A model generated the notes under the pieces. The model was not told the origin of the DNA. It worked only from the letters and a program-made list of their open reading frames with translations, and did no database searches. DNA of 32,314 nt from Blastococcus sp. MG754426 (GTDB lineage: Bacteria > Actinomycetota > Actinomycetes > Mycobacteriales > Geodermatophilaceae): the NCBI RefSeq assembly GCF_021699055.1, contig NZ_SSXC01000047.1, positions 1 to 32,314 of the forward strand, in the 5' to 3' direction. Below, one piece after another: positions 9,221 to 28,042 of the stretch. The position numbers and the translations under genes are program-made. Each line of letters opens with the position of its first letter. Positions within the stretch are counted from its first letter, which is position 1.

Positions 9221-9642
9221 CCGACCTGCAGCGTCAGCAGCACCGTCCCGGCGTCGTGCAGCTCCAGCTCGAAGACCCCGGGGATCGTGGCGTCGAACGC
9301 GAGCTCCGCCGGCTGCCCCGGCACCAGGTTGGCCAGCTCGTCGTACCCGTGCAGGTGCGCCTCGTCGGCGACGTCGGAGGTGACGACGACGGTCACCGGC
9401 TCACCCAGCGGCACCGGCACCCGGCCGGTGTCGCCGGTGACCCGGCCGTCCGCGTACGCCACCTCGATGCGCCGGCCGGCGGCCTCCGTCGGTGCGGGGT
9501 CGGTCGGCGTGGTGCTGCCGGCGGCGGGGGAGTCGGCTGCCGCAGGAGCGGCCGCCTCCACGGCGGGGGCGGCCGTGCCGGCGCAGCCGGCGAGCGGGAG
9601 CGCCAGCAGCAGGACGGCGGCGGCCGTGCGGCGCGGGCTCAC
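9217..9642 (-). CDS. Lipoprotein with cupredoxin-like domain
   Basis: The protein has 141 residues. The signal peptide ends in a lipobox L-A-G-C20, followed by an Ala/Pro/Ser/Thr-rich linker to about 55. A compact beta-rich domain at about 58-141 contains A-H-L-H-G-Y-D and ends F-E-L-E-L-H-D-A-G-T-V-L-L. This looks like the cupredoxin_1/EfeO-type fold, and the paired histidines could bind a metal, but the full blue-copper ligand set (Cys/Met) is not visible. GTG at 9642 overlaps the stop of the upstream gene by four bases, and its own stop overlaps the next ATG. It is the middle gene of a three-gene operon and should sit on the outer face of the membrane. Confidence 0.78.
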   Translation of the reverse strand: MSPRRTAAAVLLLALPLAGCAGTAAPAVEAAAPAAADSPAAGSTTPTDPAPTEAAGRRIEVAYADGRVTGDTGRVPVPLGEPVTVVVTSDVADEAHLHGYDELANLVPGQPAELAFDATIPGVFELELHDAGTVLLTLQVG

Positions 9643-11468
9643 CGGCGCGCCCCGGACGCCGCCGTGCGCTGCCGGGGGCGGCCCGCCGGGGCGTCGGCGG
9701 ACGGCTCCCCGGCGGGGCCGCGGCGGGCGTGGCGGGCCACGCCCCAGGCGATGGCGGCCACGAGCGCCAGCGTGCAGGCGAGCACCACGAGGTTGGACAC
9801 CAGCCACAGGCCGCCGCCGCTGTCCTGCAGCTCCCGCTGCAGGATGTCGATCTCGGGGATCGCGCTGCGGGTCATGCCGTCCTCGGCGGGGATCTCGCCG
9901 GCGGGGATCGCGTCGTCCTGCGGCAGGTAGATGGGGAACGCGGTGAGCACCCGCCCGTCGTGCACGCGCAGCAGCGTCTTCCACGTGCCGTGCAGCGGCA
10001 CCGGCTCGGTCGTCCGGTACTCGCCCTCGCCGACCCGCTCCAGCGGCGTCACGACCAGGCCCTGGCCCTGCCAGGCGGTGATCTGCAGCCACGCGGGGTC
10101 GTCCGGGAAGTCCGCCGGGTCCAGCCGCACCCCGATGTCGGCGGTGCGCGGCCCCGTGGTGACCTCGTCGATGGTGAAGGTCGCCTCCACGTCGTCGGGG
10201 ACGGTGGCGACCAGGCCGTTGGCGACGGCGCCCGCGAGCACCGCCAGGCAGGCCAGCAGCACGCCGCGGGCGACGGCGGGGCGCGGCAGCCGGCGGCGCA
10301 GCCCGGTGGCCAGCAGGGCACCCAGCAGCGCCCCGGCGATGCCGCCGGCGAGCGCCATGAGCGTGCCCTCGACCAGGATGTCGCTGCCCCAGCTGAGCTC
10401 CTGGACGAGGTGGGTCCAGCCCGCCTCCGTGGCATGGCCGACCGTGCCGATCGCCACCCCGGCCACGGCGCCGAACAGCAGCGGCCTCCGCGCCGGCGGC
10501 AGCGCGAGCGCCAGGAGCTCGACCGCGATCGCCGAGCCGAGGTAGAGCGGGAACGTGGGGGTGATCTCGCCGAGGCCCGGGCCCACGACCAGCGCGATGG
10601 AGCCGCGCACGACCAGGAAGAACACCGTCGCGGCGAGCGCGCCGCCGCGGCCCATGAACATGCGGGCGGCGACCAGCGCGACGCCGGCGGCGCCGGCGAT
10701 CATGAACGGCTCCAGCACCAGCCGGAACTGTGGCACGTCGAAGTCGTACTCGCCCTGGAACACCGACATGCCCAGCAGCAGCCCACCCATGGCCGAGGCC
10801 TGCCGGAGGAAGCGGACGGTGCCCGCCCGGTCACCGCCGTCGGTGGAGCGCCTGCCGTGCCCCTCCTGCTCGAGGACCAGCAGCCCGACGATCGACAGGC
10901 CGGCGCCGCCGATCAGCATCAGGTGGGTGGGGCCCCAGAGGGTCACGTCCTGGCCGAACATCCGGTGCCACACGTCGTCCAGGGGGAACCCGAGCAGCGC
11001 GTAGAAGCCCGCGGCCGTGAGCAGGATGCCGCCGACCGGGACGTCCCAGCCGCGGACGAAGCGCACCGCCGCCGGGCCGGGCCGCTCGTCCAGCGGCATG
11101 GCGCAGGCCAGCACACCGCCGGCGAAGACACCGAACAGGCCGAAGAGGATGAGGTAGTGGGCCGGGTTCGCCAGCGGACCCTCGTCACGGCCCACGCCGA
11201 TGTGCAGGGCGATGTCCCACAGCATGCCGAGCAGGGCGGTGAGCAACGACGCCGTGGTGAGGACCGTCGGCAGGGCGACCCAGCCCGGTGCGCCCGTGGC
11301 GCGGCCCAGCCGGTCGCCCACCCGCACGAGCAGGGTCGACCGCCGGGTGCGGTGCGCGAGGACCAGGGCCAGCAGCACGGCGGTCAGGAGCGCGCCGATG
11401 CCCGTGGCGAGGGCGACCTCGCCCAGGGCGGCACCTCCTGCCGGACGCGTCTCGGCGGCGATCAGCAC
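9639..11468 (-). CDS. Large polytopic membrane protein with extracytoplasmic C-terminal domain
   Basis: The protein has 609 residues. About twelve hydrophobic segments fill residues 1-420. They are followed by a soluble beta-type region at about 430-555 that starts D-V-E-A-T-F-T-I-D-E-V, then one more membrane helix near 565-590 and a basic tail. The membrane part contains conserved-looking His/Asp/Glu residues (D-I-A-L-H-I-G, P-A-H-Y-L-I, W-G-P-T-H-L-M) that could bind metal or haem, which is an inference only. I do not recognise a named family. GTG at 11468 is chosen because GGGAGG sits six bases upstream; the longer frame starting at 11501 would overlap the promoter. It is the first gene of the operon and is divergent from a MerR regulator. 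Confidence 0.8.
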   Translation of the reverse strand: MLIAAETRPAGGAALGEVALATGIGALLTAVLLALVLAHRTRRSTLLVRVGDRLGRATGAPGWVALPTVLTTASLLTALLGMLWDIALHIGVGRDEGPLANPAHYLILFGLFGVFAGGVLACAMPLDERPGPAAVRFVRGWDVPVGGILLTAAGFYALLGFPLDDVWHRMFGQDVTLWGPTHLMLIGGAGLSIVGLLVLEQEGHGRRSTDGGDRAGTVRFLRQASAMGGLLLGMSVFQGEYDFDVPQFRLVLEPFMIAGAAGVALVAARMFMGRGGALAATVFFLVVRGSIALVVGPGLGEITPTFPLYLGSAIAVELLALALPPARRPLLFGAVAGVAIGTVGHATEAGWTHLVQELSWGSDILVEGTLMALAGGIAGALLGALLATGLRRRLPRPAVARGVLLACLAVLAGAVANGLVATVPDDVEATFTIDEVTTGPRTADIGVRLDPADFPDDPAWLQITAWQGQGLVVTPLERVGEGEYRTTEPVPLHGTWKTLLRVHDGRVLTAFPIYLPQDDAIPAGEIPAEDGMTRSAIPEIDILQRELQDSGGGLWLVSNLVVLACTLALVAAIAWGVARHARRGPAGEPSADAPAGRPRQRTAASGARR

Positions 11469-11491
11469 GGTGTCCCTCCCAGGCATGTGCC

Positions 11492-11522
11492 TATGTAACA
11501 CGAGTAACGGTTACATCGACAA
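11492..11522 (-). promoter_or_regulatory. MerR-type promoter/operator of the membrane operon
   Basis: On the minus strand TTGTCG (11522-11517) and TACATA (11497-11492) are separated by 19 bases. That over-long spacer is the hallmark of MerR-activated promoters. The dyad ATGTAAC (11493-11499) / GTTACAT (11510-11516) covers the spacer, and an inner GTAAC-G-GTTAC lies at 11504-11514. The operon's GTG at 11468 and its Shine-Dalgarno follow directly. The divergent MerR gene starts 54 bases away, which supports it as the binding protein. Confidence 0.65.
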
Positions 11523-18090: not shown

Positions 18091-18336
18091 TCAGGCGCCG
18101 AGGACGGCGGTGCGCACCAGGTACAGCAGCACCACCACGGCGACCGCCACGGCGAGCCCGACCCACAGCCGGCGCTCGCGCACGCGGTCGGCCTCGGTCT
18201 CGTCGGCCAGCGCGACCGGGTCGGCCCACACAGGGGGCAGCCCGCCGCAGCGGGCGAGCAGCTCCTCGGTGAGCACCACCGGCGGGCTCACCCGGAACGG
18301 CTGCCCGGCCCCGACCAGGTGCTCGACGCTGCTCAT
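18091..18336 (-). CDS. Small C-terminally anchored membrane protein of the glycan operon
   Basis: The protein has 81 residues. The first 50 are soluble, with no cleavable signal, and a basic stretch (R-V-R-E-R-R) precedes a single strongly hydrophobic helix at about 57-77. It is thus a tail-anchored-like protein with a cytosolic N-terminus. ATG at 18336 overlaps the stop of the glycosyltransferase gene (ATGA), so it is translationally coupled to it and is the last gene of the five-gene operon. No family is recognised. By position it may be an accessory subunit of the synthase. Confidence 0.7.
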   Translation of the reverse strand: MSSVEHLVGAGQPFRVSPPVVLTEELLARCGGLPPVWADPVALADETEADRVRERRLWVGLAVAVAVVVLLYLVRTAVLGA

Positions 18337-19814
18337 GCGGTGACCCTCCCGGTCTTCTCGGTCTTGTCCCAGGTCATCGCGGCCCCGCGGAACTCCTTGA
18401 CGTAGGCGTCCGCGGTGATCGCGCACATCATCGGCCCGAAGCCGACCAGGTAGAGCGCCAGCGGCGTCAGCGGCCGGCCCCAGCGGGTGCCCTCCAGCCT
18501 GCGCACCCCGTAGGCCAGCGGGATGCAGAGCACCAGCCAGCTGTAGACGAACAGCGTCCAGAACGTCTCGGCGCCGCCGGACAGGGGGACGATCCCCGGG
18601 AAGGCCGCCGAGACCAGGACGACGAAGGAGACGGCGCCGGGGAACAGCAGGGCCTCGCGCCACACCTTCAGGCCGGTGCGCGGGTCGACCGACATCGTCA
18701 GCGTGATCATGAAGACGAACGTCGCGATCGGCACGAAGACCGCTGCGCCGAACACCTCCGAGGCGAGCTCGCTGTCGAGCAGGAAGAGCCCGATGAGGCC
18801 GACCGAGGTGAGCAGCATCGCCACCGGCAGCAGCAGGATGGCGAACCAGAAGATGCCGAAGAAGAAGCCGCCCAGCCCCGGGTGCACCGACCGGCGGAAC
18901 CACAGGTGCCGGTACATCGAGGTGATCTGCACGTTGCCCCGGGCCCAGCGCAGCCGCTGCTTCCACAGCGCGTCCACGCCGGCCGGCTCCTCGGCCAGCA
19001 CGCGGGCGTGCGGCTCGAAGACGACGCGGCGCCCGGCGAGCTGGGTGCGGAAGGTGGTGACGGTGTCCTCGGCCAGCGACGAGGTGTCGATCTGGCCGCC
19101 GATCGCCACCAGGTTCTCCCGCGAGTGCAGCTGGGCGCCCCCGGCCAGGCAGGCCATCGCGCCGGCGACGTTCTGGGCCCGGCGCGAGGCGGCCTGCGCG
19201 GCCAGGTAGTCGAACCCGATGAACCGGGTGATGCCCTCCGGGTCGCCGCTGCCCTCGCGGATGTAGGCGGTGACCGCACCGACCGTGGGGTCGGCGAGGT
19301 GGCGGGTCATCTTGCGCAGCGAGGCCGGCTCGTAGATGACGTCGGCGTCCATGATCAGGAGCGCCTCCATCCAGTCGTCGGCGAGGATCTCGCGCAGCCC
19401 GTGGTTGAGGGTGTGCGCCTTGCCCTCGCCGCCCTTCTCGCGGCGCAGGTGCACGACCCGGCCCGGGAAGCGCTCGGCGCAGGCGGCGAGCACGGCGGGG
19501 GTGTCGTCGGTGCTGGCGTCGTCGACGACGTACACCCGCAACCGGTCCGGCGGGTAGTCCAGCCCCATCAGCCGCTCGATCGAGGTGGTGAGCACCGCGG
19601 CCTCGTTCCAGGCCGGGATCACCACCGCGACGTTGGGCAGGTACGGGCCGGTCTCCCGGTAGTGGTTGCGCAGCGCGTGGAACGGGATGACGAGGAACTG
19701 TGCCAGCCCGGCCACGACGGGGACCGCCCCGATGCCGACCAGCGCCAGCAGGACGACGGTCAGCGCGGTCTCCCCGATCGCGGCGACGTCCGTGCCCGCG
19801 GCCAGGGTGCTCAC
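18333..19814 (-). CDS. Processive-type family 2 glycosyltransferase, membrane-embedded
   Basis: The protein has 493 residues. There is a hydrophobic N-terminal segment (about 13-45), then a cytosolic GT-A domain with V-V-I-P-A-W-N-E-A (about 63-71), V-V-D-D-A-S-T-D, the metal-binding D-A-D near 155, an A-E-D acid motif near 245, and Q-R-L-R-W-A-R-G near 285. The D, DxD, ED, QxxRW set is that of cellulose/hyaluronan/poly-GlcNAc synthases that polymerise and export a sugar chain. At least five C-terminal membrane helices follow. The sugar is unknown; the operon's PIG-L domain hints at GlcNAc. ATG at 19814 overlaps the preceding PHP gene's stop. It is the fourth of five coupled genes. Confidence 0.88.
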   Translation of the reverse strand: MSTLAAGTDVAAIGETALTVVLLALVGIGAVPVVAGLAQFLVIPFHALRNHYRETGPYLPNVAVVIPAWNEAAVLTTSIERLMGLDYPPDRLRVYVVDDASTDDTPAVLAACAERFPGRVVHLRREKGGEGKAHTLNHGLREILADDWMEALLIMDADVIYEPASLRKMTRHLADPTVGAVTAYIREGSGDPEGITRFIGFDYLAAQAASRRAQNVAGAMACLAGGAQLHSRENLVAIGGQIDTSSLAEDTVTTFRTQLAGRRVVFEPHARVLAEEPAGVDALWKQRLRWARGNVQITSMYRHLWFRRSVHPGLGGFFFGIFWFAILLLPVAMLLTSVGLIGLFLLDSELASEVFGAAVFVPIATFVFMITLTMSVDPRTGLKVWREALLFPGAVSFVVLVSAAFPGIVPLSGGAETFWTLFVYSWLVLCIPLAYGVRRLEGTRWGRPLTPLALYLVGFGPMMCAITADAYVKEFRGAAMTWDKTEKTGRVTA

Positions 19815-20560
19815 CGGGCGCCGACCAGCCGGGTCGCCGACGCCGCGTCAGCCACCCACGAGAAGCGGCCCACCGTGGCGGCCTCGTGGCTGTCGGTGGA
19901 GCCGACCAGGGTCACCCCGGCGGCGGCCAGCGCCAGGACCACGCGCGGCCCCGGGCAGCGCCACTTCTCGTTGACCTCGACGGTGGTGCCGGTGCGCACC
20001 GCGGCATCGGCGATCGCGGCCACGTGCTCGTCGAGCAGTTCGCTCTCGTGCAGCCCGATCTTGGGCAGCAGCGAGAACAGGTGGGCGAGCTGGGCGCGGC
20101 CGGCCCGCTGCATCGCGCGCACGGTGGCCTCGACCAGGATCGACAGCGCGTCCTGGGCGGGCAGCCCGCCCTCGATCTCCTCGAGCGTGCGGCGGGGGCT
20201 CCACGGACCGTCCGGCCCGGGGAACTGGTGGTCGGCGATGAGGATGCGGTCCACCCCGCCCGGCCCCACCACGAGGTCCTCGGGCAGGTCCAGGCGCCCG
20301 GAGGCGTCCAGCATCTTCGCCTCCACGCCGGTGAGCACCTCCAGCCCCTCGACGCGGGGCAGCGCGGCGACCTCGGCGAGGAAGCCGGGCACCCAGGTCG
20401 TCGTCGTCCGGACGTGGTCGACCATGCGGATGCTGGCCAGCCCGGTGTCGCGGGCGGCGACCAGGTTCTCCGCCGGCGCGCTCACCGCGTCGTCGGACCA
20501 GGTGGAGTGCACGTGGTGGTCGGTGAGCAGCAGGTCGAGGTCCTGCAGGGCGGTGGTCAT
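19811..20560 (-). CDS. PHP-domain phosphoesterase
   Basis: The protein has 249 residues and is cytosolic. The PHP metal-binding motifs appear in order: D14-H-H16-V-H18 near the N-terminus, M-V-D-H, G-V-E-A-K, A-D-H-Q-F, A-H-L-F, and S-T-D-S-H-E near the C-terminus. Stand-alone PHP proteins are trinuclear-metal phosphoesterases (histidinol phosphatase, YciV or CpsB type, the last linked to capsule synthesis). The substrate here is unknown, but a sugar-phosphate or a phosphoprotein would fit. ATG at 20560 overlaps the ATP-grasp stop and its own stop overlaps the glycosyltransferase start, so translation is coupled on both sides. Confidence 0.85.
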   Translation of the reverse strand: MTTALQDLDLLLTDHHVHSTWSDDAVSAPAENLVAARDTGLASIRMVDHVRTTTTWVPGFLAEVAALPRVEGLEVLTGVEAKMLDASGRLDLPEDLVVGPGGVDRILIADHQFPGPDGPWSPRRTLEEIEGGLPAQDALSILVEATVRAMQRAGRAQLAHLFSLLPKIGLHESELLDEHVAAIADAAVRTGTTVEVNEKWRCPGPRVVLALAAAGVTLVGSTDSHEAATVGRFSWVADAASATRLVGAR

Positions 20561-21546
20561 CGGGCGGCCTCCTCGGCGACGACGTCGGACGGGGCGAGGA
20601 AGACGTCCTCCAGGTGGCGGACGACGGCGAGCTCGCGGAACGGCACCGCGGCCGGCAGCGGCCGGCCCAGCGCCAGGTCCAGGGCGAGCGAGGGCATGTC
20701 GACGCCGGCGGCGACGGTCAGCGGCATCGCCCCGGGGAAACGCGGGTTGACCTCCAGGAGGGCCGGGCGGCCCTCGGCGTCGCGGCGCAGCTGCACGTTC
20801 GCCACCCCGACCAGCCCGATCGCGCGGGCCACCCGGCGGGCGGTCTCCTCCAGCTCCGGGTCGGCGACGGTGGCCCCGGCGACCGAGACGCCGGAGTCGA
20901 CCCGCAGGCGGGACCGCGGCACGGCGGCGACCACGTGCCCGTCGGCGTCGGCCAGCGTGTCGACCGAGTACTCCTCGCCGGGCAGGTGGGCCTGCACGAG
21001 GGTGTCCTCGTCGCTGCCGAGGGCGCGCAGCGCGGCGGCGTCCTCGACCAGGTGCACCCCGCGGGAGCCGGCGCCGCGGCGCGGCTTGACGATCACCGGG
21101 TAGTCCCAGCTGCCGGCGTCGGTCGCACCCAGCAGCGCGGTGCGCGGCGTGGGCAGCACCTCGGCGCAGCGCTGCGCCAGCGCGTACTTGTCCAGGCAGA
21201 CCTCGAGCGTCTCCAGGCTCGGGGCGGCCAGCGTGGTGCCGACGGCGTCCAGGCGCTTGCGCTCGGCGGCCAGCCGCGGCAGCTCGACGTCGACGGTGGA
21301 GAACAGCACGTCGACCCGCTCCCGCTCGCACAGCGCGACCAGGTGGTCGACGAACTCCTCGTCCAGGCCCGGCCGGACCAGGTGCCGGGCGCCGGCCTCG
21401 ACCAGGTAGAGGCCGCTGGCGTACCGGTCCATGTCGGCGGCGAGCAGCACGACGTCGTCGCGCCGGGCCAGCGAGCGGAGCACGGCGATGCCCGCGGGGC
21501 CGCCCGCTCCGGTGACGAGGACGCGGGTGGGGCTGGGGTCAGACAC
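20557..21546 (-). CDS. ATP-grasp ligase (carbamoyl-phosphate-synthase-like)
   Basis: The protein has 329 residues and is cytosolic. The N-terminal domain begins R-V-L-V-T-G-A-G-G-P-A-G, a Rossmann-like pre-ATP-grasp fold. The ATP-grasp core shows P-V-I-V-K-P-R-R-G-A-G-S-R-G-V and the metal-binding L-L-E-V-N-P-R-F-P-G. Enzymes of this group activate a carboxylate with ATP and join it to an amine or thiol. In this operon an amine exposed by the PIG-L deacetylase is an attractive acceptor, but that is inference. GTG at 21546 overlaps the receiver-PIG-L gene's stop by eight bases; the open frame further upstream is low-complexity and rejected. Confidence 0.85.
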   Translation of the reverse strand: MSDPSPTRVLVTGAGGPAGIAVLRSLARRDDVVLLAADMDRYASGLYLVEAGARHLVRPGLDEEFVDHLVALCERERVDVLFSTVDVELPRLAAERKRLDAVGTTLAAPSLETLEVCLDKYALAQRCAEVLPTPRTALLGATDAGSWDYPVIVKPRRGAGSRGVHLVEDAAALRALGSDEDTLVQAHLPGEEYSVDTLADADGHVVAAVPRSRLRVDSGVSVAGATVADPELEETARRVARAIGLVGVANVQLRRDAEGRPALLEVNPRFPGAMPLTVAAGVDMPSLALDLALGRPLPAAVPFRELAVVRHLEDVFLAPSDVVAEEAAR

Positions 21547-22621
21547 CGTAGGGCTCCGGGGTGGTCGAGGTGGCGGGGGAGGGCTGCTGGAAGGCGGACT
21601 CGCTGGTCGCGCCGACGACGCCACCGGCGTCGCGGACCACCTCGAGCGGCTCGCAGTACTGGCCGCCGCTGCCGTAGCGGGACCAGTAGCGGGCGGTGGC
21701 CAGGACGAAGTCGTCCTGGAGGTAGGCGCGGATGCCGGCCTGCGAGCGGAAGCTCTTGAGCAGGTCCAGCTTGGTGCGGGTGAACCCGTCGATGGAGACG
21801 AAGCGGGAGGGCCGGAAGTCGATCGTCGCCGAGGGGCTCTGGAAGCAGGCCACCGTCGGCACGTTGCGGGTCGCGACGGTCGCGGCCTGGTGCACCGCCC
21901 GGTGGTCCTGGTGCCGGTCGTTGGCCGAGTGCGTGTAGACGATCGTCGGCCGCACCTCGGCGACGACGCGCTCGATGATCGACATGGTCGGGTCCATCGG
22001 GCTGATGCGGGTGTCCTCGAGGTCCTCGAGGAACAGGCGGGCGCCGATCAGCTCGGCGGCGGCCAGGGACTCGTCCTGCCGGTCGTCGGCCGCACCGCCG
22101 CGCGCGCCCCGCGAGAGCGTGAGGATGACGACCTGGTCGCCGGCCGAGCGGTGCGCGGCCAGGGTGCCGCCGACGCCGATCTCGACGTCGTCGGGGTGGG
22201 CGCCGATGGCGAGCACCGTCTGCCGCCGGGGCGCCGCGGCGCGCTTGGCCTGCGCGGTCTCGGCCAGCCGGCGGATCGTCGCAGCCAGGGTCTCCTTGGG
22301 CACCGGCTTGACGAGGAACTCGTCGGCCTGGCGGCGCAGGGCGTCCACGGCGTAGTCGACCGACGCGTGCGCCGTCATCACGGTCACCGGCAGGTCCGGG
22401 CGCAGCGCGCGGAGCCGGTCGAGGAACTCCAGCCCCGTCATGCCCGGCATCTCGATGTCGGTGATCGCGGCGTCGAACTCGGTGCGCCCGGCGAGGGCGA
22501 GCGCCTCGAGCGGGTCCGCGCACGTGGTCACGGCCATGCCGCCCCGCTGCAGCACGGTGCGGACGAAGAATGCGGTGTCGGGGTCGTCGTCGACGACCAG
22601 GACGTGCAGGGCACCGTCCAC
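21539..22621 (-). CDS. Response-regulator receiver fused to a PIG-L (LmbE) deacetylase
   Basis: The protein has 360 residues. Residues 5-122 are a CheY-like receiver with D11/D12, phospho-acceptor D55 (T-D-I-E-M-P-G), T83 and K105 (V-K-P). Residues 135-330 are a PIG-L/LmbE domain with A141-H-P-D-D145-V-E and H-S-A-N-D-R-H-Q-D-H240, the zinc-binding pattern of N-acetylglucosaminyl deacetylases such as MshB. The tail from about 335 is Ser/Pro/Thr-rich. A receiver directly fused to a deacetylase implies that phosphorylation switches the enzyme itself and not transcription. GTG at 22621 with GGGAG upstream starts at the receiver's first strand. It is the first gene of the five-gene operon. Confidence 0.88.
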   Translation of the reverse strand: MDGALHVLVVDDDPDTAFFVRTVLQRGGMAVTTCADPLEALALAGRTEFDAAITDIEMPGMTGLEFLDRLRALRPDLPVTVMTAHASVDYAVDALRRQADEFLVKPVPKETLAATIRRLAETAQAKRAAAPRRQTVLAIGAHPDDVEIGVGGTLAAHRSAGDQVVILTLSRGARGGAADDRQDESLAAAELIGARLFLEDLEDTRISPMDPTMSIIERVVAEVRPTIVYTHSANDRHQDHRAVHQAATVATRNVPTVACFQSPSATIDFRPSRFVSIDGFTRTKLDLLKSFRSQAGIRAYLQDDFVLATARYWSRYGSGGQYCEPLEVVRDAGGVVGATSESAFQQPSPATSTTPEPYGV

Positions 22622-22800
22622 GGTTCCGGCTCCCGTCGGTCGGGTCCCCCGGGTCGACCGGGAGGGGGAACGGGATGTCCCCGCGGGGGTTGACGGCCGC
22701 CCGGGCCCCACCCATGAGCCGTGCCCCGCCGTCCTCACCCGATGGGGTGGGCCGGGGGACAGGCCGCCCGCTCAAGCCGCCCGGCCGGCGTGCCGATCAC

Positions 22801-22816
22801 CCGGTCAGGTGACCGG
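22801..22816. promoter_or_regulatory. Perfect dyad upstream of the OmpR-family regulator
   Basis: CCGGTCA-GG-TGACCGG is a perfect 7-base inverted repeat, 46 bases before the regulator's GTG and 180 bases from the divergent operon's GTG. It may be an operator for either transcript. The rest of 22622-22861 is GC-rich with no recognisable -10. Confidence 0.45.
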
Positions 22817-22861
22817 AGGACCAGCCTCCGCACGCCCAGCGAGCAGCGAGGAGGGGACGTC

Positions 22862-23572
22862 GTGCCGGAGCAGTCCGTGCTCGTGGTGGAGGACACCGAG
22901 GAGATCCGCGAGCTCGTGACCACGGTGCTCGGGCGGGCGGGGTTCGCCGTGCGCGCCGTCGGCACCGGGATCGAGGCGCTGGAGGAGGTGCGGCGCGACC
23001 CGCCGGACCTCATCGTGCTCGACCTCGGGCTCCCCGACGCCGACGGCACCGAGGTGTGCCGGCAGATCCGCGCCGAGACGCCCTGCTACGTGCTGATGCT
23101 CACCGCGCGGGCCGAGGAGGTCGACCTGCTCATCGGGCTGGCCGTCGGCGCCGACGGGTACATGGCCAAGCCGTTCTCCCCGCGCGAGCTCGTGGCCCGG
23201 GTGCAGGCGATGCTGCGCTTCCCGCGGACCGCCCCGCAGCCGGCCGCGGCGCCGGCCGCGGCGGCCGAGTCGGTGCGCCGGCTCGCCGAGCTGGAGGTCG
23301 ACGAGGACAGCCGCGAGGTCCGGGTCGACGGCGAGGTCGTCGACCTGACCCGCACCGAGTTCGACCTGCTCGCCGCGCTCGCCTCCCGGCCGGGTCGCGT
23401 GCTGCAGCGGGAGACGCTGCTGCGCGAGGTCTGGCACACCGACTGGGAGGGCAACCTGCGCCTGGTCGAGGCGCACATGTCCAACCTGCGCCGCAAGCTC
23501 GTCGCCGCCGGGCTGAGCACGCCGGAGATCAGGACCGTCCGCGGCGTCGGCTACCGGCTGGTCGCCGCGTAG
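22862..23572 (+). CDS. OmpR/PhoB-family response regulator
   Basis: The protein has 236 residues. The receiver (about 4-120) has D11, phospho-acceptor D54 (V-L-D-L-G-L-P-D), T81 and K103 (M-A-K-P-F). An Ala/Pro linker at about 121-137 leads to a winged-helix DNA-binding domain (about 140-235) with R-T-E-F-D-L-L, the recognition-helix region V-E-A-H-M-S-N-L-R-R-K-L and the closing T-V-R-G-V-G-Y-R-L. GTG at 22862 has a strong AGGAGGGG upstream. No histidine kinase is adjacent on the same strand. The PAS kinase, Hpt and single receiver 0.1-5 kb away are candidate partners, and the 11-bp repeats at 25811-25854 are a candidate target. Confidence 0.92.
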   Translation: MPEQSVLVVEDTEEIRELVTTVLGRAGFAVRAVGTGIEALEEVRRDPPDLIVLDLGLPDADGTEVCRQIRAETPCYVLMLTARAEEVDLLIGLAVGADGYMAKPFSPRELVARVQAMLRFPRTAPQPAAAPAAAAESVRRLAELEVDEDSREVRVDGEVVDLTRTEFDLLAALASRPGRVLQRETLLREVWHTDWEGNLRLVEAHMSNLRRKLVAAGLSTPEIRTVRGVGYRLVAA

Positions 23573-23592
23573 CCCCCCTGCCGCGCAGGCAC

Positions 23593-23643
23593 AGGAAGCT
23601 GTGCACCCGCCTCGGGGCCCCGGGACGCCGGTAGAAGCTTCCT
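23593..23643. terminator. Structured bidirectional terminator region
   Basis: The arms aggaagct (23593-23600) and agcttcct (23636-23643) enclose a GC-rich loop that itself contains the palindrome cggggccccg. The element lies between the stops of the convergent OmpR-family and Hpt genes. Confidence 0.5.
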
Positions 23644-23666
23644 ATGCCTCCGCGGGTCGGGGGCGC

Positions 23667-24077
23667 TCAGCAGGCGCCGGCGAGCTGCTGCAGCCGGGCG
23701 ACCCGCGAGTGGGCGAGCACCCCGCGGCGGGCGTCGGCGGCGATCTCCTGGCAGATCGAGGCGACCTCCGGGTGGCCCAGCTGACCGCTGGTCCCGGCCA
23801 GGGTGTGGGCCGCGAAGGCGACCGCGGTGGCGTTCCCGGCGCGGGTGTGCCGGTCGATCGCCGACAGCCGCGAGGGCAGCGCCTCGGCGTACACGCCCCG
23901 CAGCCGGGCCATCAGCTCGCCGTCGACCAGGTCGTCGTCCGCGGCGTCGTCCCCGGCCTGCGCGCCCGGCCCCGTGGTCCGGGCGCGCAGGAAGTCCAGG
24001 AGGCCGTCGTCGGAGAGGAGGGCGACGGTCCGGCCGGGGGCAGGGGCGGTCCGATCCGCGGGCGGGCCGGTCAGCAC
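23667..24077 (-). CDS. Histidine phosphotransfer (Hpt) domain protein
   Basis: The protein has 136 residues. Residues about 50-130 form a helical Hpt domain with the phospho-accepting histidine H91 in A-A-H91-T-L-A-G-T-S-G-Q-L-G, a close match to the family motif. The N-terminal 45 residues are Gly/Ala/Asp-rich and probably flexible. Hpt proteins shuttle phosphoryl groups between receivers in multistep phosphorelays. GTG at 24077 overlaps the end of the Fn3-like gene by seven bases, making it the last gene of the TasA-like operon. Coupling a cytosolic relay protein to exported structural proteins is odd and suggests that fibre production and signalling are linked. Confidence 0.85.
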   Translation of the reverse strand: MLTGPPADRTAPAPGRTVALLSDDGLLDFLRARTTGPGAQAGDDAADDDLVDGELMARLRGVYAEALPSRLSAIDRHTRAGNATAVAFAAHTLAGTSGQLGHPEVASICQEIAADARRGVLAHSRVARLQQLAGAC

Positions 24078-24484
24078 GACACGGCCGCGGTCGGTGCGGA
24101 CGTCGCCGTCCAGCCGTACGGGGTCTCGGCGGTCACCGTGAACGTGTAGCTCTGCCCGGAGGCCCAGTAGGTCTCGCTGACGCTCGTGCCCCGCGCACCC
24201 GTCCGGCCCACGACGAACGTCGTGCCGTTGCTCCGGCGGGCGGTGACCACGTAGCCGCTGACATCGGGAGAGGAGCTCGGGCTCCACGAGATCCGGACCC
24301 CGAACCTCAGGAAGCACCAGCTGCCGGCCGTGCTGACCGCCGTGGGCGGCTGGACGACCTCGGTCGAGATGGTGGTCGGCACGCTCGCGGTGCCGTCGAA
24401 GCCGGCCGCGGCGGGGACGGCGGTCCCGGCGACGAGTGCGGCGGCGAGGCCGGTGACGGCCAGGGCGCGGCGGACGGCGTTCAC
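24071..24484 (-). CDS. Secreted small Fn3-like domain protein
   Basis: The protein has 137 residues. A signal peptide covers residues 1-27 (hydrophobic core, likely cleavage after V-P-A-A-A). The mature part is one beta-sandwich of the fibronectin type III kind: I-S-W-S-P-S-S-S-P-D-V-S-G-Y-V-V in the B-C strands and Q-S-Y-T-F-T-V-T-A near the end. Two cysteines (W-C and the C-terminal S-C) could join the termini. GTG at 24484 overlaps the SipW stop (GTGA). It should be an extracellular adhesion or fibre-associated module. The partner is unknown, but the operon points to the TasA-like protein. Confidence 0.75.
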   Translation of the reverse strand: MNAVRRALAVTGLAAALVAGTAVPAAAGFDGTASVPTTISTEVVQPPTAVSTAGSWCFLRFGVRISWSPSSSPDVSGYVVTARRSNGTTFVVGRTGARGTSVSETYWASGQSYTFTVTAETPYGWTATSAPTAAVSC

Positions 24485-25098
24485 GCCTGGTCCTCCTCGG
24501 TCTGCCGGGTCGGGCGCCAGATGGTCAGGAGCAGCCAGCCGGCGAGCAGCGCGGGGGCTCCGTAGAGCAGCACCTGGCTGACGACCGGGGTGCGCAGGAG
24601 CTGGACCAGGTGGCCGAACTCCGGGATGACCGCGCGGACCTGGTAGACGCTGTCGCCCTGGAGGCCGGCGGTCCACGGGTCGATGGCCTCGTTGGCGTCA
24701 CCCCTGGTCTGCACGGTGACGCTGCCGTCCTCGGCCCGGTCGACCGAGACGACGCGGTGGGTGATGAGGCTGCGGTCGCCCACCGGCATGTGGTACGTGA
24801 TCACCATGCCCTCGGTGAGCTCGGTGAGGGCGATCGGGGTGGCGATGGTGATGTCGCCCGGCTCGATGCCCGGCGCCATGCTCGCGGTCAGCATGGTCAT
24901 CGTGCGGTAGCCGAGCAGGTGCGGTCCGACGGCCAGGACGGCGAAGGCCAGGACGGCGACCCCCATGACGCCGCGGACCAGCCACGGGGTCGTGCGGCCC
25001 ACGGTGCGGCGGAACCGGCCGGCCGTGGGACGCGCGTCCTCGCTCGGGGCCGGCTCGACAGCCGGCGCCGCGGCGCGGACGGGGAGGACGGTGGTCAT
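24481..25098 (-). CDS. sipW: Type I signal peptidase of the SipW (ER) type
   Basis: The protein has 205 residues. An N-terminal membrane helix (about 40-62) and a second near the C-terminus (about 175-195) flank the catalytic domain. The nucleophile is S73 in T-A-S-M-A-P-G, and the general base is H114 in L-I-T-H-R-V-V in place of the bacterial Lys, which marks the SipW/ER subgroup. A later R-G-D-A-N-E segment supplies the conserved Asp. In Bacillus SipW processes TasA and TapA for biofilm fibres. Here the TasA-like gene is directly upstream (32 bases), and the Fn3-like gene overlaps its stop. ATG at 25098 is preceded by a GGAG-like sequence. Confidence 0.9.
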   Translation of the reverse strand: MTTVLPVRAAAPAVEPAPSEDARPTAGRFRRTVGRTTPWLVRGVMGVAVLAFAVLAVGPHLLGYRTMTMLTASMAPGIEPGDITIATPIALTELTEGMVITYHMPVGDRSLITHRVVSVDRAEDGSVTVQTRGDANEAIDPWTAGLQGDSVYQVRAVIPEFGHLVQLLRTPVVSQVLLYGAPALLAGWLLLTIWRPTRQTEEDQA

Positions 25099-25130
25099 GG
25101 CGGGAACTCCGTGTGGTCGTCGGGCGGGGC

Positions 25131-25742
25131 TCAGCGGGCGGTGCCGGCGGCCTGCGTGCCGGTGAAGGTCAGGCGCAGGGTGGCGGTCTTGCCCTGGAAG
25201 GAGTTGTCGGCCGCGGTCGGCAGCGAGATCGAGAAGACGAGGTTGTCGGAACCGCCCGCGGTCAGGGACTTGAGCCCGGGGAGGTCGACGGGCTTGAGGA
25301 CCGGCCCGGTCGAGAGCTGCTTCTCGCCGCTGGCGCAGGTGTAGGTGCGGGCCGTCTCCGTGCCGCCCTGGACCCAGGCGACGTCGCAGGACCTGACGGT
25401 CAGCTGCAGCCCGTTGGCCGCGCCGTTGGTGAGGACGCTCGACGTGGCGTCCGTGGCGGAGAGCCCCACCGAGGAGAGCCCGGTGCTGCCGTCGTTCGTC
25501 AGCGTCACCGCACGGGTCAGGCTGTCACCCGGCACGAAGCCGGTCGTGGTCACCGGGATGGCCGCCGCGGGCTGGGTCAGGTCGATCGAGACCGTGCCGG
25601 AGCTGATCGTCGTGTCGACCGAGGTGGAGTCGGTGAAGCTGCCGAAGGTGCCCAGGCCGGCGACCGCGGCCGCCGCGCCGATCACGCCGAGCGAGCCGAT
25701 GACCTTGCGGGCGGTCGAGGCGGTGGCGGTGGTGGTGCTCAT
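25131..25742 (-). CDS. TasA/camelysin-like SipW-dependent exported protein
   Basis: The protein has 203 residues. The N-terminus has the SipW-substrate form: a basic A-R-K, a hydrophobic stretch at about 14-31 and G-T-F-G-S-F-T-D-S, where TasA-family proteins have a comparable A-x-F-T-D site. The rest is beta-rich with Thr/Ser/Gly, and two cysteines (S-C-D-V and Y-T-C-A-S-G) could form a loop disulfide. TasA-family proteins are secreted fibre or matrix components. ATG at 25742 has AGGAG upstream. It is the first gene of the tasA-like/sipW/Fn3/hpt operon. Its leader holds a small hairpin, and four 11-bp repeats lie further upstream. Confidence 0.82.
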   Translation of the reverse strand: MSTTTATASTARKVIGSLGVIGAAAAVAGLGTFGSFTDSTSVDTTISSGTVSIDLTQPAAAIPVTTTGFVPGDSLTRAVTLTNDGSTGLSSVGLSATDATSSVLTNGAANGLQLTVRSCDVAWVQGGTETARTYTCASGEKQLSTGPVLKPVDLPGLKSLTAGGSDNLVFSISLPTAADNSFQGKTATLRLTFTGTQAAGTAR

Positions 25743-25770
25743 GTCCCTGCGTCTCCTGTGTCCGGGGCGA

Positions 25771-25786
25771 CGCCGGTTCTCCGGCG
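25771..25786 (-). promoter_or_regulatory. Leader hairpin of the TasA-like operon
   Basis: CGCCGG-TTCT-CCGGCG is a perfect 6-bp stem with a 4-base loop, 28 bases before the ATG on the minus strand. It could partly terminate readthrough from the kinase gene or act in the leader RNA. Confidence 0.35.
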
Positions 25787-25810
25787 ACACCGAGGACTCT
25801 CCGGGGGCAA

Positions 25811-25854
25811 CCGCAGGCCACCCGCCAGCGATCCGCAAGGAATCCGCAAGGAAT
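25811..25854 (-). promoter_or_regulatory. Four tandem 11-bp direct repeats, likely response-regulator operator
   Basis: Units 25811-25821, 25822-25832, 25833-25843 and 25844-25854 follow each other without gaps. The last two are identical (ccgcaaggaat), and all four keep CCGC at 1-4, G at 7 and A at 10. Head-to-tail 11-bp repeats, one helical turn each, are the usual sites of OmpR/PhoB-family dimers. They lie 69-112 bases upstream of the TasA-like ATG and just past the kinase stop. Confidence 0.7.
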
Positions 25855-25865
25855 GGGCGCGTCCG

Positions 25866-27614
25866 TCACCCGGGGACGGGCAGGGTCATCGTGAAGGTGG
25901 TGCCGACGCCCTCGGTGCTCTCCAGGTCCAGCGTGCCGCCGTGGGCGGTGGTGATGGCCTTCGTGATGGTGAGCCCGAGCCCGACCCCGGGGACGGCGTT
26001 GCGCTGCGCGTTCGACGTCCGGAAGAAGCGGGTGAACATCTGCCCCTGCTCGCCGGCGGGGATGCCCATCCCGGTGTCGGCGACCGAGAGCAGCGCCACC
26101 GGCGCCGCCTCGGGGACGCGGTGGTCGACGACCTCGCCCTCGGGCGTGCGCCAGCCCCGGCGCAGCACCAGGTCGATGCGCCCCCCGGCCGGCGTGAACT
26201 TGACCGCGTTGGAGACCAGGTTGTCGCAGGCCTGCCCCAGCCGGACGGCGTCGCCGGCCACGACCAGCCCGTCATCGGGCACGTCGACGACGATCTGCAC
26301 ACCCGCGGCCGCGGCGGCGACCCGGGCGGTCTCCTCGGCCGCGCGGACCACGCCGGCGAGGTCGACGTCGGCCGGCTGCAGGGTGAACCGGCCGCTCTCC
26401 ACCTGTGCGGTGAAGAGCAGGTCGCCGACCAGCCGCAGCAGCCGCTGGGCGTTGCGCTCCACCGTGGCGAGGTACTGCCGCTGCTCGTCGGTGAGGGGCT
26501 GGTCCTCGTCGTCCATGACCAGCTCGAGGTAGCCCAGGATCGAGCTCAGCGGCGTGCGCAGCTCGTGGCTGATCAGGCTGACGAACTGGTCCTTCATCCG
26601 CTCGGTGGCGCGGGCCTCGGTCATGTCGGTGCCGACGAAGTTCCAGCCGGCGTGCGCGCCGCGGTCGTCCGAGCGCGGGGTGATGGCGACGGAGACGGTG
26701 CGGTGGCTGCCGTCGGCGGCGACGTAGGTCCAGTCCCGGACGTCGCTGCCGTGCTCGCGGGCGGCGTGCACCAGCGCCTCGAGGCCGGTGCCGCAGGCGC
26801 GGTCCGCGGCGGCCGCGTCGAGCTCCTCGGGCAGGTGGAAGTCGAGGATCGAGCGGGTCCGGACGACGTCCGGGCGGGGGACGCCCAGCATCTTCTCCGC
26901 CCCGGGGTTCCAGACGCGGATGGTGCCGTCCCGGTCGGTGCCGATGATCGACTGCTCGGTGACCGCGTCGATCACGCTGGTCATGGTCTGGGCGCGGGCG
27001 GCCAGGATGCGCGAGGCGGTGTCCAGCTCGTCGGCGCGGCTCTGCACCTGGGCCAGCAGCGCGGCCTGCTCCCGCTCCAGCTGCCCGATCTCGCGCGACC
27101 GGGCGGCCAGCCGGCGGGCGGTCCCGTGGACCGCCGAGCCCCCGGCGGCGACGACGAGGGTCCCGAGCAGCAGCGCACCGGGCGGGTCCGTGACCGCGGG
27201 CACCGACAGCACCGCGGCGCTCCCGAGCACGCCGACCAGCAGCCCCCGGCGGTCCGGCTGCATGGCGAGCGCCCACAGCGGGCCCACGAGCAGCAGCAGG
27301 GTGGTCGCGGAGCCGGTGCCCGCGTGCAGGAGGGCGACGGCGCCCAGCTGCGCCGCGGGGACGGCGACGGAGCCGGCGACGGAGCGGGACCGTCGGGCGG
27401 CCCACGCGACGCCGGTGGCGGCCGAGGCGGCGGCCAGGCCCGCGAGGACGAGGTCTCGGTCGGCCACGGGGATCGAACCGGTCAGCAGCAGCAACGCCGC
27501 CCCGGTGAACAGGACCGTGCACAGCAGCGGCCCGTGCAGCACCCCCGCGACGGGGGATCGGCGGGTCCAGGAGCCATCGGCTGCCTGCGGGCGGTCGAGG
27601 ACGGCGAGGCTCAT
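25866..27614 (-). CDS. Membrane PAS histidine kinase
   Basis: The protein has 582 residues. Five to six hydrophobic segments cover about 25-165 (a membrane sensor without a large external loop). A coiled coil at about 168-210 is followed by a PAS domain at about 212-330 (G-T-I-R-V-W-N-P-G-A-E, and closing D-M-T-E). HisKA has phospho-acceptor H350 in S-L-I-S-H-E-L-R-T-P-L, and HATPase_c has D-N-L-V-S-N-A-V-K-F (N-box), D-T-G-M-G-I (G1), F-R-T (F-box) and G-V-G-L-G-L (G2). All catalytic parts are present. ATG at 27614 overlaps the stop of the single-domain receiver gene, so the two form one unit. Its sensory input is unknown. Confidence 0.92.
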   Translation of the reverse strand: MSLAVLDRPQAADGSWTRRSPVAGVLHGPLLCTVLFTGAALLLLTGSIPVADRDLVLAGLAAASAATGVAWAARRSRSVAGSVAVPAAQLGAVALLHAGTGSATTLLLLVGPLWALAMQPDRRGLLVGVLGSAAVLSVPAVTDPPGALLLGTLVVAAGGSAVHGTARRLAARSREIGQLEREQAALLAQVQSRADELDTASRILAARAQTMTSVIDAVTEQSIIGTDRDGTIRVWNPGAEKMLGVPRPDVVRTRSILDFHLPEELDAAAADRACGTGLEALVHAAREHGSDVRDWTYVAADGSHRTVSVAITPRSDDRGAHAGWNFVGTDMTEARATERMKDQFVSLISHELRTPLSSILGYLELVMDDEDQPLTDEQRQYLATVERNAQRLLRLVGDLLFTAQVESGRFTLQPADVDLAGVVRAAEETARVAAAAAGVQIVVDVPDDGLVVAGDAVRLGQACDNLVSNAVKFTPAGGRIDLVLRRGWRTPEGEVVDHRVPEAAPVALLSVADTGMGIPAGEQGQMFTRFFRTSNAQRNAVPGVGLGLTITKAITTAHGGTLDLESTEGVGTTFTMTLPVPG

Positions 27615-28042
27615 GCCACCGGCTCCCCCGCGGCCAGCGCGCGCACCTGCCGGACCAGCCCGGCCACGGTGAACGGTTTGGGCAGGTAGGCGTCGGCGCC
27701 GGCGGCCAGCCCGCGGGTGACCTCGTCCGGGGAGGCGCCGGCCGACAGCAGCAGGATGCGGATGCCGGCGGTCGCCGGGGTCGCGCGGAGGGCCGTGCAG
27801 ATCTCCAGGCCCGTGGCACCCGGCATGGAGACGTCCAGGACGGCCAGGTCGGGGAGCTGGGCCCGCGCCGCGGCCAGCGCCGTCGTGCCGTTGGGGGCCG
27901 CGACGACCACGTGCCCGCCGGCCTTGCGGACGGCCAGGCAGACCAGGGCGCGGATGTCGTCCTCGTCGTCGGCGACGAGCACGCGGATCGCACCCGGGGC
28001 CGGCCCGGCGGAGCCGCCGGGGGAGTGCAGGGCCGGATCCAC
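27611..28042 (-). CDS. Single-domain response regulator (receiver only)
   Basis: The protein has 143 residues. An 18-residue Gly/Pro/Ala leader precedes one receiver domain with D25/D26/E27 (V-A-D-D-E-D-D), phospho-acceptor D70 (A-V-L-D-V-S-M-P-G), S100 in the Thr/Ser position and K122 (L-P-K-P-F). No output domain follows, so it is a phosphate carrier or a protein-binding switch, as in multistep relays. GTG at 28042 has CGGGAG upstream. The kinase start overlaps its stop by four bases. With the Hpt at 23667 and the receivers at 22862 and 21539, a His-Asp-His-Asp relay is possible. Confidence 0.88.
   Translation of the reverse strand: MDPALHSPGGSAGPAPGAIRVLVADDEDDIRALVCLAVRKAGGHVVVAAPNGTTALAAARAQLPDLAVLDVSMPGATGLEICTALRATPATAGIRILLLSAGASPDEVTRGLAAGADAYLPKPFTVAGLVRQVRALAAGEPVA

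What the first reader, a model, noticed from the sequence alone, without database searches (positions are those of the whole stretch)
18091..28042. Candidate phosphorelay-controlled extracellular matrix locus
Within 10 kb lie genes for a PAS histidine kinase (H350), a single-domain receiver (D70), an Hpt protein (H91), an OmpR-family regulator (D54) and a receiver-deacetylase fusion (D55), which are all the parts of a His-Asp-His-Asp relay. Interleaved are a processive GT2 synthase with PHP, ATP-grasp and PIG-L partners, and a TasA-like/SipW/Fn3 set. Known biofilm loci combine an exopolysaccharide with TasA fibres, but I know of none with this relay and a directly phospho-switched deacetylase. 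That the parts form one system is inferred from proximity, overlaps and complementarity.
Basis: partly seen in the sequence, partly recalled or inferred. Interest (0 to 1): 0.85.

Follow-up and report, generated by a model that had tools for sequence, protein, structure and literature searches.

The report
Kinase-switched deacetylase beside a fibre locus
An actinobacterium close to Blastococcus carries a sensor kinase, a surface-fibre gene set and a sugar-polymer gene set side by side, with a sugar-trimming enzyme fused directly to a signal-receiving domain; the gene sets recur together in some distant relatives, but the supposed phosphate-relay protein has lost its key residue in most of the relatives compared and probably works differently.

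Summary
Comparison with relatives shows two modules.

Module A is REC, PAS-histidine kinase, TasA-like, SipW, Fn3, [REC]-Hpt, plus a facing OmpR regulator. It sits beside module A in Blastococcus and recurs in Cellulomonas, Microbacteriaceae and others, with a kinase of module A's family nearby in 28 of 36 loci. In the Cellulomonas-type clade TasA/SipW lie nearby in 9 of 11 loci.

So one kinase family beside a REC-deacetylase, in two lineages also beside fibre genes, is well supported. The His-Asp-His-Asp relay is not: the Hpt acceptor His is present in 10 of 34 loci (window included) and is the most variable of 82 Hpt columns, and the Hpt protein's own receiver is deleted in the window. Kinase His (64/64), OmpR Asp (39/39) and REC-PIG-L Asp (52/53) are kept.

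Best reading: a branched two-component system with a transcriptional and a direct enzymatic output, plus a decaying relay adaptor. Substrate, polymer and phosphotransfer are untested.

The parts
27611..28042 (-). Stand-alone receiver (REC, D70), first gene of module A
   Evidence: Pfam Response_reg 78.9 bits; overlaps the kinase start; present at this place in most relatives mapped, not detected in L230
25866..27614 (-). Membrane PAS-HisKA-HATPase histidine kinase (H350), hub of the locus
   Evidence: Pfam; His 64 of 64 in the aligned family; Cellulomonas module-B kinase hits it with 341 bits, next own-genome hit 114
25131..25742 (-). TasA/camelysin-like secreted protein with SipW-type signal
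   Evidence: PF12389 45.8 bits; TIGR04088 19.6 against 19; only PF12389 match found in the genome
24481..25098 (-). SipW-type signal peptidase
   Evidence: TIGR02228 54.9 against 51.85; Ser 44 of 44
24071..24484 (-). Small secreted Fn3-like protein, start overlaps the SipW stop
   Evidence: PF00041 25.4 bits against 25; two orthologues scanned gave no Pfam match; orthologues diverge fast
23667..24077 (-). Hpt protein that has lost the N-terminal receiver still present in 27 of 34 loci; acceptor H91 present here but not conserved
   Evidence: PF01627 36 bits
22862..23572 (+). OmpR-family response regulator (D54)
   Evidence: Pfam; acceptor Asp 39 of 39, 37 of them in Geodermatophilaceae loci
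22622..22861 (.). Divergent promoter region between the OmpR gene and REC-PIG-L, with k-mers conserved upstream of OmpR
   Evidence: 8-mer CCGATCAC upstream of OmpR in 84% of 37 loci, upstream of TasA in 3% of 36
21539..22621 (-). REC-PIG-L fusion: receiver joined to a PIG-L-type N-deacetylase (D55; AHPDD and HxxDH motifs)
   Evidence: Pfam; alignments A1, A2; residues 52 of 53 and 53 of 53; model with REC, long helix and PIG-L fold
20557..21546 (-). ATP-grasp ligase (ATPgrasp_Ter / PRK12767-like)
   Evidence: PF15632 113.7 bits; NCBIfam PRK12767 below its cut-off, 163.7 against 218; syntenic
19811..20560 (-). PHP-like phosphoesterase (below Pfam cut-off)
   Evidence: PF02811 20.9 bits against 26.4; NCBIfam PHP domain 45.3 against 264
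18333..19814 (-). Membrane GT2 glycosyltransferase with D, DxD, D, QxxRW
   Evidence: PF13641 108 bits; catalytic residues 37 of 37; best NCBIfam PgaC 120 against 422
18091..18336 (-). 81-aa protein with one predicted membrane helix, start overlaps the GT2 stop; possible PgaD/IcaD-like partner (analogy only)
   Evidence: A short one-helix ORF at this place in 15 of 15 Blastococcus loci with a detected GT2 and in 20 of 22 distinct outside loci with this GT2 type, by place, length and hydrophobicity; homology not tested; no Pfam family above cut-off

Best explanation
A branched two-component system controls a surface-matrix locus built from two modules. The kinase (membrane, PAS) phosphorylates the OmpR regulator, probably the lone receiver, and the receiver of the REC-PIG-L fusion. 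Phosphorylation of the fusion would switch an N-deacetylase that frees an amine on an N-acetyl-amino-sugar precursor in the cytoplasm. The neighbouring ATP-grasp enzyme would couple a carboxylate to that amine, the PHP enzyme would trim a phosphate, and the GT2 with its small membrane partner would assemble or transfer the glycan. The same locus makes a SipW-processed TasA-like protein, likely a fibre. The Hpt protein is not the obligatory relay: it is a decaying REC-Hpt adaptor that likely acts by binding. Shown: genes, synteny, conserved or lost phospho-sites, kinase kinship. Inferred: phosphotransfer, substrate, polymer, fibre, adaptor role.
For: Synteny: 13 of 18 Blastococcus loci with full order, exceptions named above. 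REC-PIG-L outside Blastococcus, 36 distinct loci: contiguous ATP-grasp-PHP-GT2 in 21, an ATP-grasp-GT2 pair on the other strand in 5, GT2 alone in 1, ATP-grasp alone in 1, neither in 8; a kinase of this family in 28; TasA+SipW in 9. Kinase kinship: the Cellulomonas kinase finds the window kinase with 341 bits, next 114; at E <= 1e-100 the kinase was found in 6 of 394 class genomes (three genera), all 6 among the 12 of 394 with REC-PIG-L. Identity of the window kinase to kinases at outside REC-PIG-L loci, medians: DHp 69%, HATPase 57%, PAS 37% (28 kinases), sensor part 26% (24 kinases). Phospho-sites: HK His 64/64, OmpR Asp 39/39, REC-PIG-L Asp 52/53, PIG-L residues 53/53, Hpt His 10/34. The PIG-L part folds like BC1534, BshB and chitobiose deacetylases; that these act on small GlcNAc compounds is from titles and recall.
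Against: Module A is intact in the 5 Blastococcus genomes without a REC-PIG-L fusion and, with Hpt and OmpR, in 13 of 15 other-genus loci examined, so module A and its kinase do not need module B. Eight of 36 outside loci have neither ATP-grasp nor GT2 near REC-PIG-L, and 8 of 36 have no kinase of this family nearby. TasA/SipW beside module B is seen in only two lineages, and independence within each is not tested. No top-ranked promoter k-mer is common to the OmpR side and TasA or REC. High DHp identity is partly general to kinases: one own-genome paralogue has 48%, and the lowest outside value is 50%. The window's own Hpt still has its His, so a relay in this strain is not excluded. GT2 and TasA-like are far below the PgaC and TasA equivalog cut-offs.
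Confidence: 0.55

Rival explanations
1. One reading: a working four-step relay, kinase to lone receiver to Hpt to OmpR and REC-PIG-L, drives the matrix genes.
For: All domains are in the window with intact residues. The genome has only two Hpt matches, the other in a 906-aa ORF. Four of 34 loci keep receiver Asp and Lys and Hpt His together.
Against: Hpt His in 10 of 34, most variable of 82 columns, at least 14 residue changes on the locus tree, while flanking residues are fixed. The Hpt protein's receiver is deleted in 7 of 34, window included.
Confidence: 0.12
2. Two unrelated neighbours: a family-wide TasA/SipW two-component locus, and a REC-PIG-L glycan operon that landed next to it in Blastococcus with no functional tie.
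For: Module A stands without module B in the 20 loci mapped, and module B is absent or reduced to traces in 5 Blastococcus genomes without loss of A. No common promoter k-mer.
Against: Outside Blastococcus, module B usually lies with a kinase of module A's family (28 of 36). In the window's genome no second kinase of this family was found: the next match has 113 bits over the catalytic part only. The DHp is the best-kept part of the kinase. TasA/SipW lie nearby in Cellulomonas too, in another order.
Confidence: 0.28
3. The receiver of REC-PIG-L mainly sets dimerisation or location of a housekeeping deacetylase acting on a small thiol-type or lipid precursor, not on a matrix glycan.
For: Closest folds are BC1534, BshB and chitobiose deacetylase. 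L058, L059, L190, L191 and L194 pair REC-PIG-L with the kinase without GT2.
Against: In 26 of 36 outside loci ATP-grasp and GT2 genes lie within a few kb. No mycothiol-type gene turned up among the genes scanned; no dedicated search was made.
Confidence: 0.15

Closest known systems
Response regulators with enzymatic output (CheB, PleD, RssB, PorX; recalled, PleD and PorX also appear as fold matches)
   Same: Receiver joined to an enzyme, acceptor Asp conserved in 52 of 53.
   Different: The output is a PIG-L-type N-deacetylase. None of my searches on this (listings only, open-licence library) listed such a fusion.
TasA-SipW matrix operons of Bacillus (tapA-sipW-tasA)
   Same: M73/TasA-type protein with SipW-type signal beside a SipW-type peptidase.
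   Different: Far below the TasA equivalog cut-off (31.7 against 450); no TapA seen, not specifically searched. Carries its own kinase, OmpR and Hpt genes. The Spo0F-Spo0B-Spo0A comparison is recalled.
PNAG synthase systems PgaABCD / IcaADBC
   Same: GT2 best matches PgaC in NCBIfam; a small one-helix protein follows, as PgaD/IcaD do (recalled).
   Different: 120 bits against 422. The deacetylase is a PIG-L type with an N-terminal receiver, not an exported CE4 type (recalled). ATP-grasp and PHP added.
Pseudo-Hpt proteins (plant AHP6, search listing and recall)
   Same: Hpt fold without the acceptor His.
   Different: Bacterial, inside an operon, His lost repeatedly within one family while some members, the window among them, keep it. 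A review gives His missing in 0.9% (90 of 10,312) of bacterial Hpt domains (PMC12632262: passages and section 6 read).

Membership tests
His-Asp-His-Asp phosphorelay | Kinase with phospho-His | tested here: met
   64 of 64
His-Asp-His-Asp phosphorelay | Hpt with conserved acceptor His | tested here: not met
   10 of 34 loci; present in the window; column identity checked by alignment to HptB 7c1i
His-Asp-His-Asp phosphorelay | Intermediate and final receivers with Asp | tested here: inconclusive
   OmpR 39 of 39 and REC-PIG-L 52 of 53. The Hpt-linked receiver keeps Asp in 19 of 27 and is absent in 7 of 34. The lone REC is intact in the window, but its family count is contaminated by other receivers and is not used.
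His-Asp-His-Asp phosphorelay | Phosphate moves through the four sites | not testable with these tools
   needs purified proteins
Response regulator with enzymatic output | Intact receiver fused to intact enzyme | tested here: met
   Asp 52/53, Lys 51/53, PIG-L H/D/D/H 53/53
Response regulator with enzymatic output | Phosphorylation changes activity | not testable with these tools
   needs an assay
TasA/SipW fibre locus | M73/TasA domain with SipW-type signal | tested here: met
   45.8 against 22.5 bits; TIGR04088 19.6 against 19
TasA/SipW fibre locus | TasA and SipW equivalog scores | tested here: not met
   TasA 31.7 against 450; SipW 56.5 against 190
TasA/SipW fibre locus | TapA partner | not tested
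   none seen among the window genes scanned; no TapA-specific search was made
TasA/SipW fibre locus | Fibres outside the cell | not testable with these tools
   needs microscopy
PNAG synthase (PgaC/IcaA) | GT2 above PgaC cut-off | tested here: not met
   120.2 against 422.3
PNAG synthase (PgaC/IcaA) | D, DxD, D, QxxRW of processive GT2 | tested here: met
   37 of 37 at each of six positions

The most novel reading that the evidence does not exclude
A kinase controls surface matrix at two levels at once: OmpR sets transcription, and a phospho-switched PIG-L deacetylase edits the glycan precursor directly. In the same operon, Geodermatophilaceae turned an ancestral REC-Hpt relay protein into a family-wide pseudo-Hpt that binds receivers without passing phosphate, with the former acceptor site freed to vary.
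Probability: 0.3. Interest if true: 0.8.

Novelty: new variant of a known kind. Interest (0 to 1): 0.6.

Why it matters
A receiver fused to a PIG-L deacetylase could let a sensor change a surface glycan without transcription, and the recurring kinase partner makes this testable with a few purified proteins. The Hpt gene offers a natural series of His-to-other replacements in otherwise similar proteins, which bears directly on what a pseudo-Hpt can do; [quoted passage not shown]

Tried and rejected
Complete four-step relay as the conserved mechanism: rejected on Hpt His and receiver decay.

Recent transfer of module B into Blastococcus: not decided. The REC-PIG-L tree places Blastococcus as one clade beside a clade that holds the Cellulomonas type, with weak support, 84/46. 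The kinase tree places the Blastococcus kinases inside Geodermatophilaceae, which fits vertical inheritance of that kinase.

Shared OmpR binding site: the k-mer comparison found k-mers conserved upstream of OmpR; none of the 24 listed was common upstream of TasA (at most 3%) or REC (at most 26%). It is crude; OmpR and REC-PIG-L share one intergenic region and so match trivially.

Class-wide search with the REC-Hpt alignment was swamped by receiver matches, 361 of 394 genomes. Among the rows listed only the two Blastococcus genomes matched the Hpt part to its end; further rows were not listed, so no count is claimed. Lone-REC residue counts were dropped because the best hit per locus was sometimes OmpR or REC-PIG-L (seen). 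My simple gene caller failed on the lower-GC loci L053, L058 and L059; those were read by profile matches instead. Outside the genus I examined 15 of the 48 TasA-positive family genomes, chosen mostly for high TasA scores and genus spread. L182 and L196 come from one genome. Hpt rows dropped before the 34: L040 and L242 (contig ends), L239 (frame break), L240 (none found); second, weaker Hpt copies were not counted. Foldseek with the Hpt model gave only E >= 0.048, though the best five are all Hpt domains. The 300-aa protein after the second GT2 type has no Pfam match. Paper searches cover only the held open-licence library. Papers opened: PMC12632262 (passages and section 6), PMC9674648, PMC3842833 and PMC9686282 (passages); all others were seen as listings.

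After the hold I rechecked the neighbourhood counts and the lineage. Mended: the L041 exception (no SipW seen), wording on the 5 Blastococcus genomes, the HATPase identity, the SipW equivalog miss, TapA as not tested, the own-genome limit.
Full report
What is there. The nearest named relatives are Blastococcus records (L051 and L052 have the contig lengths of G019 and G005, genomes of the window's genus), family Geodermatophilaceae. A further 81-aa protein with one predicted membrane helix, 18091-18336 (-), overlaps the GT2 stop. A short one-helix ORF lies at this place in 15 of 15 Blastococcus loci with a detected GT2 and in 20 of 22 distinct outside loci with this GT2 type; homology was not tested.

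Synteny inside the genus. A search of 112 family genomes with the REC-PIG-L protein listed matches over both domains only in the window's genus: 17 of 23 genus genomes; G009 has a receiver fragment. In 18 loci with longer flanks (window and L034-L050) the full order is intact in 13. L040 ends at a contig end; L041 ends at a contig end and shows no SipW between TasA and Fn3; L042 has 41 residues of GT2 matched; L045 has no ATP-grasp/PHP/GT2 and a repeated TasA-Hpt pair; L050 (G009) shows several broken frames.

Two modules. In 20 TasA-positive loci without a REC-PIG-L fusion, the arrangement REC, kinase, TasA, SipW, (Fn3), REC-Hpt and facing OmpR is mostly kept. All 5 such Blastococcus genomes show it; the separate REC was not detected in L230. 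So do 13 of 15 loci of other genera, four of them (L238, L241, L243, L245) with a second TasA; the two exceptions are L242 (contig end) and L240 (other order, no Hpt). Those 15 are a selection from 48. Traces of module B remain in three of the five Blastococcus genomes: a REC-PIG-L fragment in G008 and a lone PHP gene in G017 and G021. On the kinase tree these genomes are interleaved with carriers. I infer that module A is family-wide and that module B was gained beside it and lost more than once.

Module B elsewhere. REC-PIG-L over nearly its full length was found in 12 of 394 class genomes and, some shorter, in 24 of 396 genomes of the order of G279, and in Cellulomonas, Glaciihabitans, Cryobacterium and Microbacteriaceae records. 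Over 36 distinct outside loci, 21 have contiguous ATP-grasp-PHP-GT2, 5 an ATP-grasp-GT2 pair on the other strand, 1 GT2 only, 1 ATP-grasp only, 8 neither. A kinase of the window kinase's family is present in 28. TasA and SipW are both present in 9, all in the 11-member Cellulomonas-type clade; of the other two, L060 is a 10-kb contig and L182 shows none. There the order differs: the fibre genes lie beyond the kinase on the other strand.

The kinase ties the modules. A Cellulomonas module-B kinase finds the window kinase with 341 bits and the next own-genome kinase with 114. In the class sample the kinase was found at E <= 1e-100 in 6 of 394 genomes, all 6 with REC-PIG-L; these are three genera, so independence is limited, and within Geodermatophilaceae the kinase is common without REC-PIG-L. 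Between the window kinase and kinases at outside REC-PIG-L loci the DHp part is 69% identical, HATPase 57%, PAS 37% (medians of 28), the sensor part 26% (24 kinases). Two own-genome paralogues, compared without gaps, have 48% and 20% in the DHp. The kinase tree shows Blastococcus kinases inside Geodermatophilaceae. It is thus plausible, not shown, that the module-A kinase serves REC-PIG-L.

The relay does not hold. HK His is kept in 64 of 64, OmpR Asp in 39 of 39, REC-PIG-L Asp in 52 of 53, four PIG-L residues in 53 of 53. The Hpt acceptor is His in only 10 of 34 (Tyr 7, Gln 5, Thr 4, Asn 3, Phe 2, Asp, Gly and Ala 1 each), with a His eleven residues on and an Arg further on fixed at 34 of 34. 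It is the most variable of the 82 Hpt columns. The tree of kinase, OmpR and SipW needs at least 14 residue changes at this site, 4 if only His versus other is counted. The profile aligns this column with the His of HptB 7c1i. Twenty-seven of 34 proteins carry an N-terminal receiver, with Asp in 19 and Lys in 16; 7, the window among them, have lost it; only 4 of 34 keep receiver Asp and Lys and Hpt His. A review gives 0.9% (90 of 10,312) as the rate of missing His in bacterial Hpt domains (PMC12632262, section 6). The window keeps H91, so a relay in this strain is not excluded.

Mechanism. The REC-PIG-L model (mean pLDDT 74.5, pTM 0.54, under 50 at 264-277 and 313-360) shows a receiver, a long helix and a PIG-L fold closest to BC1534, BshB and chitobiose deacetylases. 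I propose that phosphorylation alters deacetylation of a small N-acetyl-amino-sugar compound in the cytoplasm, that ATP-grasp acts on the freed amine, and that GT2 with its small partner builds the glycan. These steps are inferred from family knowledge. TasA-like and GT2 are relatives, not equivalogs, of TasA and PgaC.

Limits. Genome sampling is one genome per species and partly selected. Neighbourhoods reach about 10 kb or to a contig end. No experiment was possible. A Geodermatophilaceae genome survey (PMC9686282) has no occurrence of the word TasA in its main text (term search only).

Noticed in passing
L149, L150, L151, L195, L196 (about 3.9-7.3 kb in L149-L151 and L196; about 12.5-15.5 kb in L195): A second GT2 type (about 420-440 bits to the profile) with its own ATP-grasp and a following protein of about 300 aa lies opposite REC-PIG-L and the kinase; the 300-aa protein of L150 and L196 has no Pfam match.
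   Followed up: partly
L045 9945-13934: G011 carries a repeated TasA-Hpt unit and lacks ATP-grasp, PHP and GT2 next to REC-PIG-L.
   Followed up: no
L230 6176-6853, L231 5863-6543, L229 6302-6472: Remnants of module B (a lone PHP gene, or a REC-PIG-L fragment) in Blastococcus genomes without the rest.
   Followed up: partly
L050 (G009) whole stretch: Several neighbouring genes are broken in frame, including the unrelated zinc peptidase, which suggests assembly errors rather than decay of this locus.
   Followed up: no
L056 16427-21025: In Cellulomonas an FAD-binding protein and a GGDEF-EAL gene flank the SipW-TasA pair, hinting at c-di-GMP control.
   Followed up: partly
window 7919-11501: Two large ORFs (434 and 620 aa) near a FlbD-type gene match nothing in Pfam or NCBIfam at the thresholds used.
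   Followed up: no
window 22622-22861: The divergent OmpR/REC-PIG-L promoter holds a near-palindrome GGTCAnnTGACC next to CCGATCAC, conserved upstream of OmpR in most of 37 loci, about half of which lack REC-PIG-L; possible autoregulation site.
   Followed up: partly
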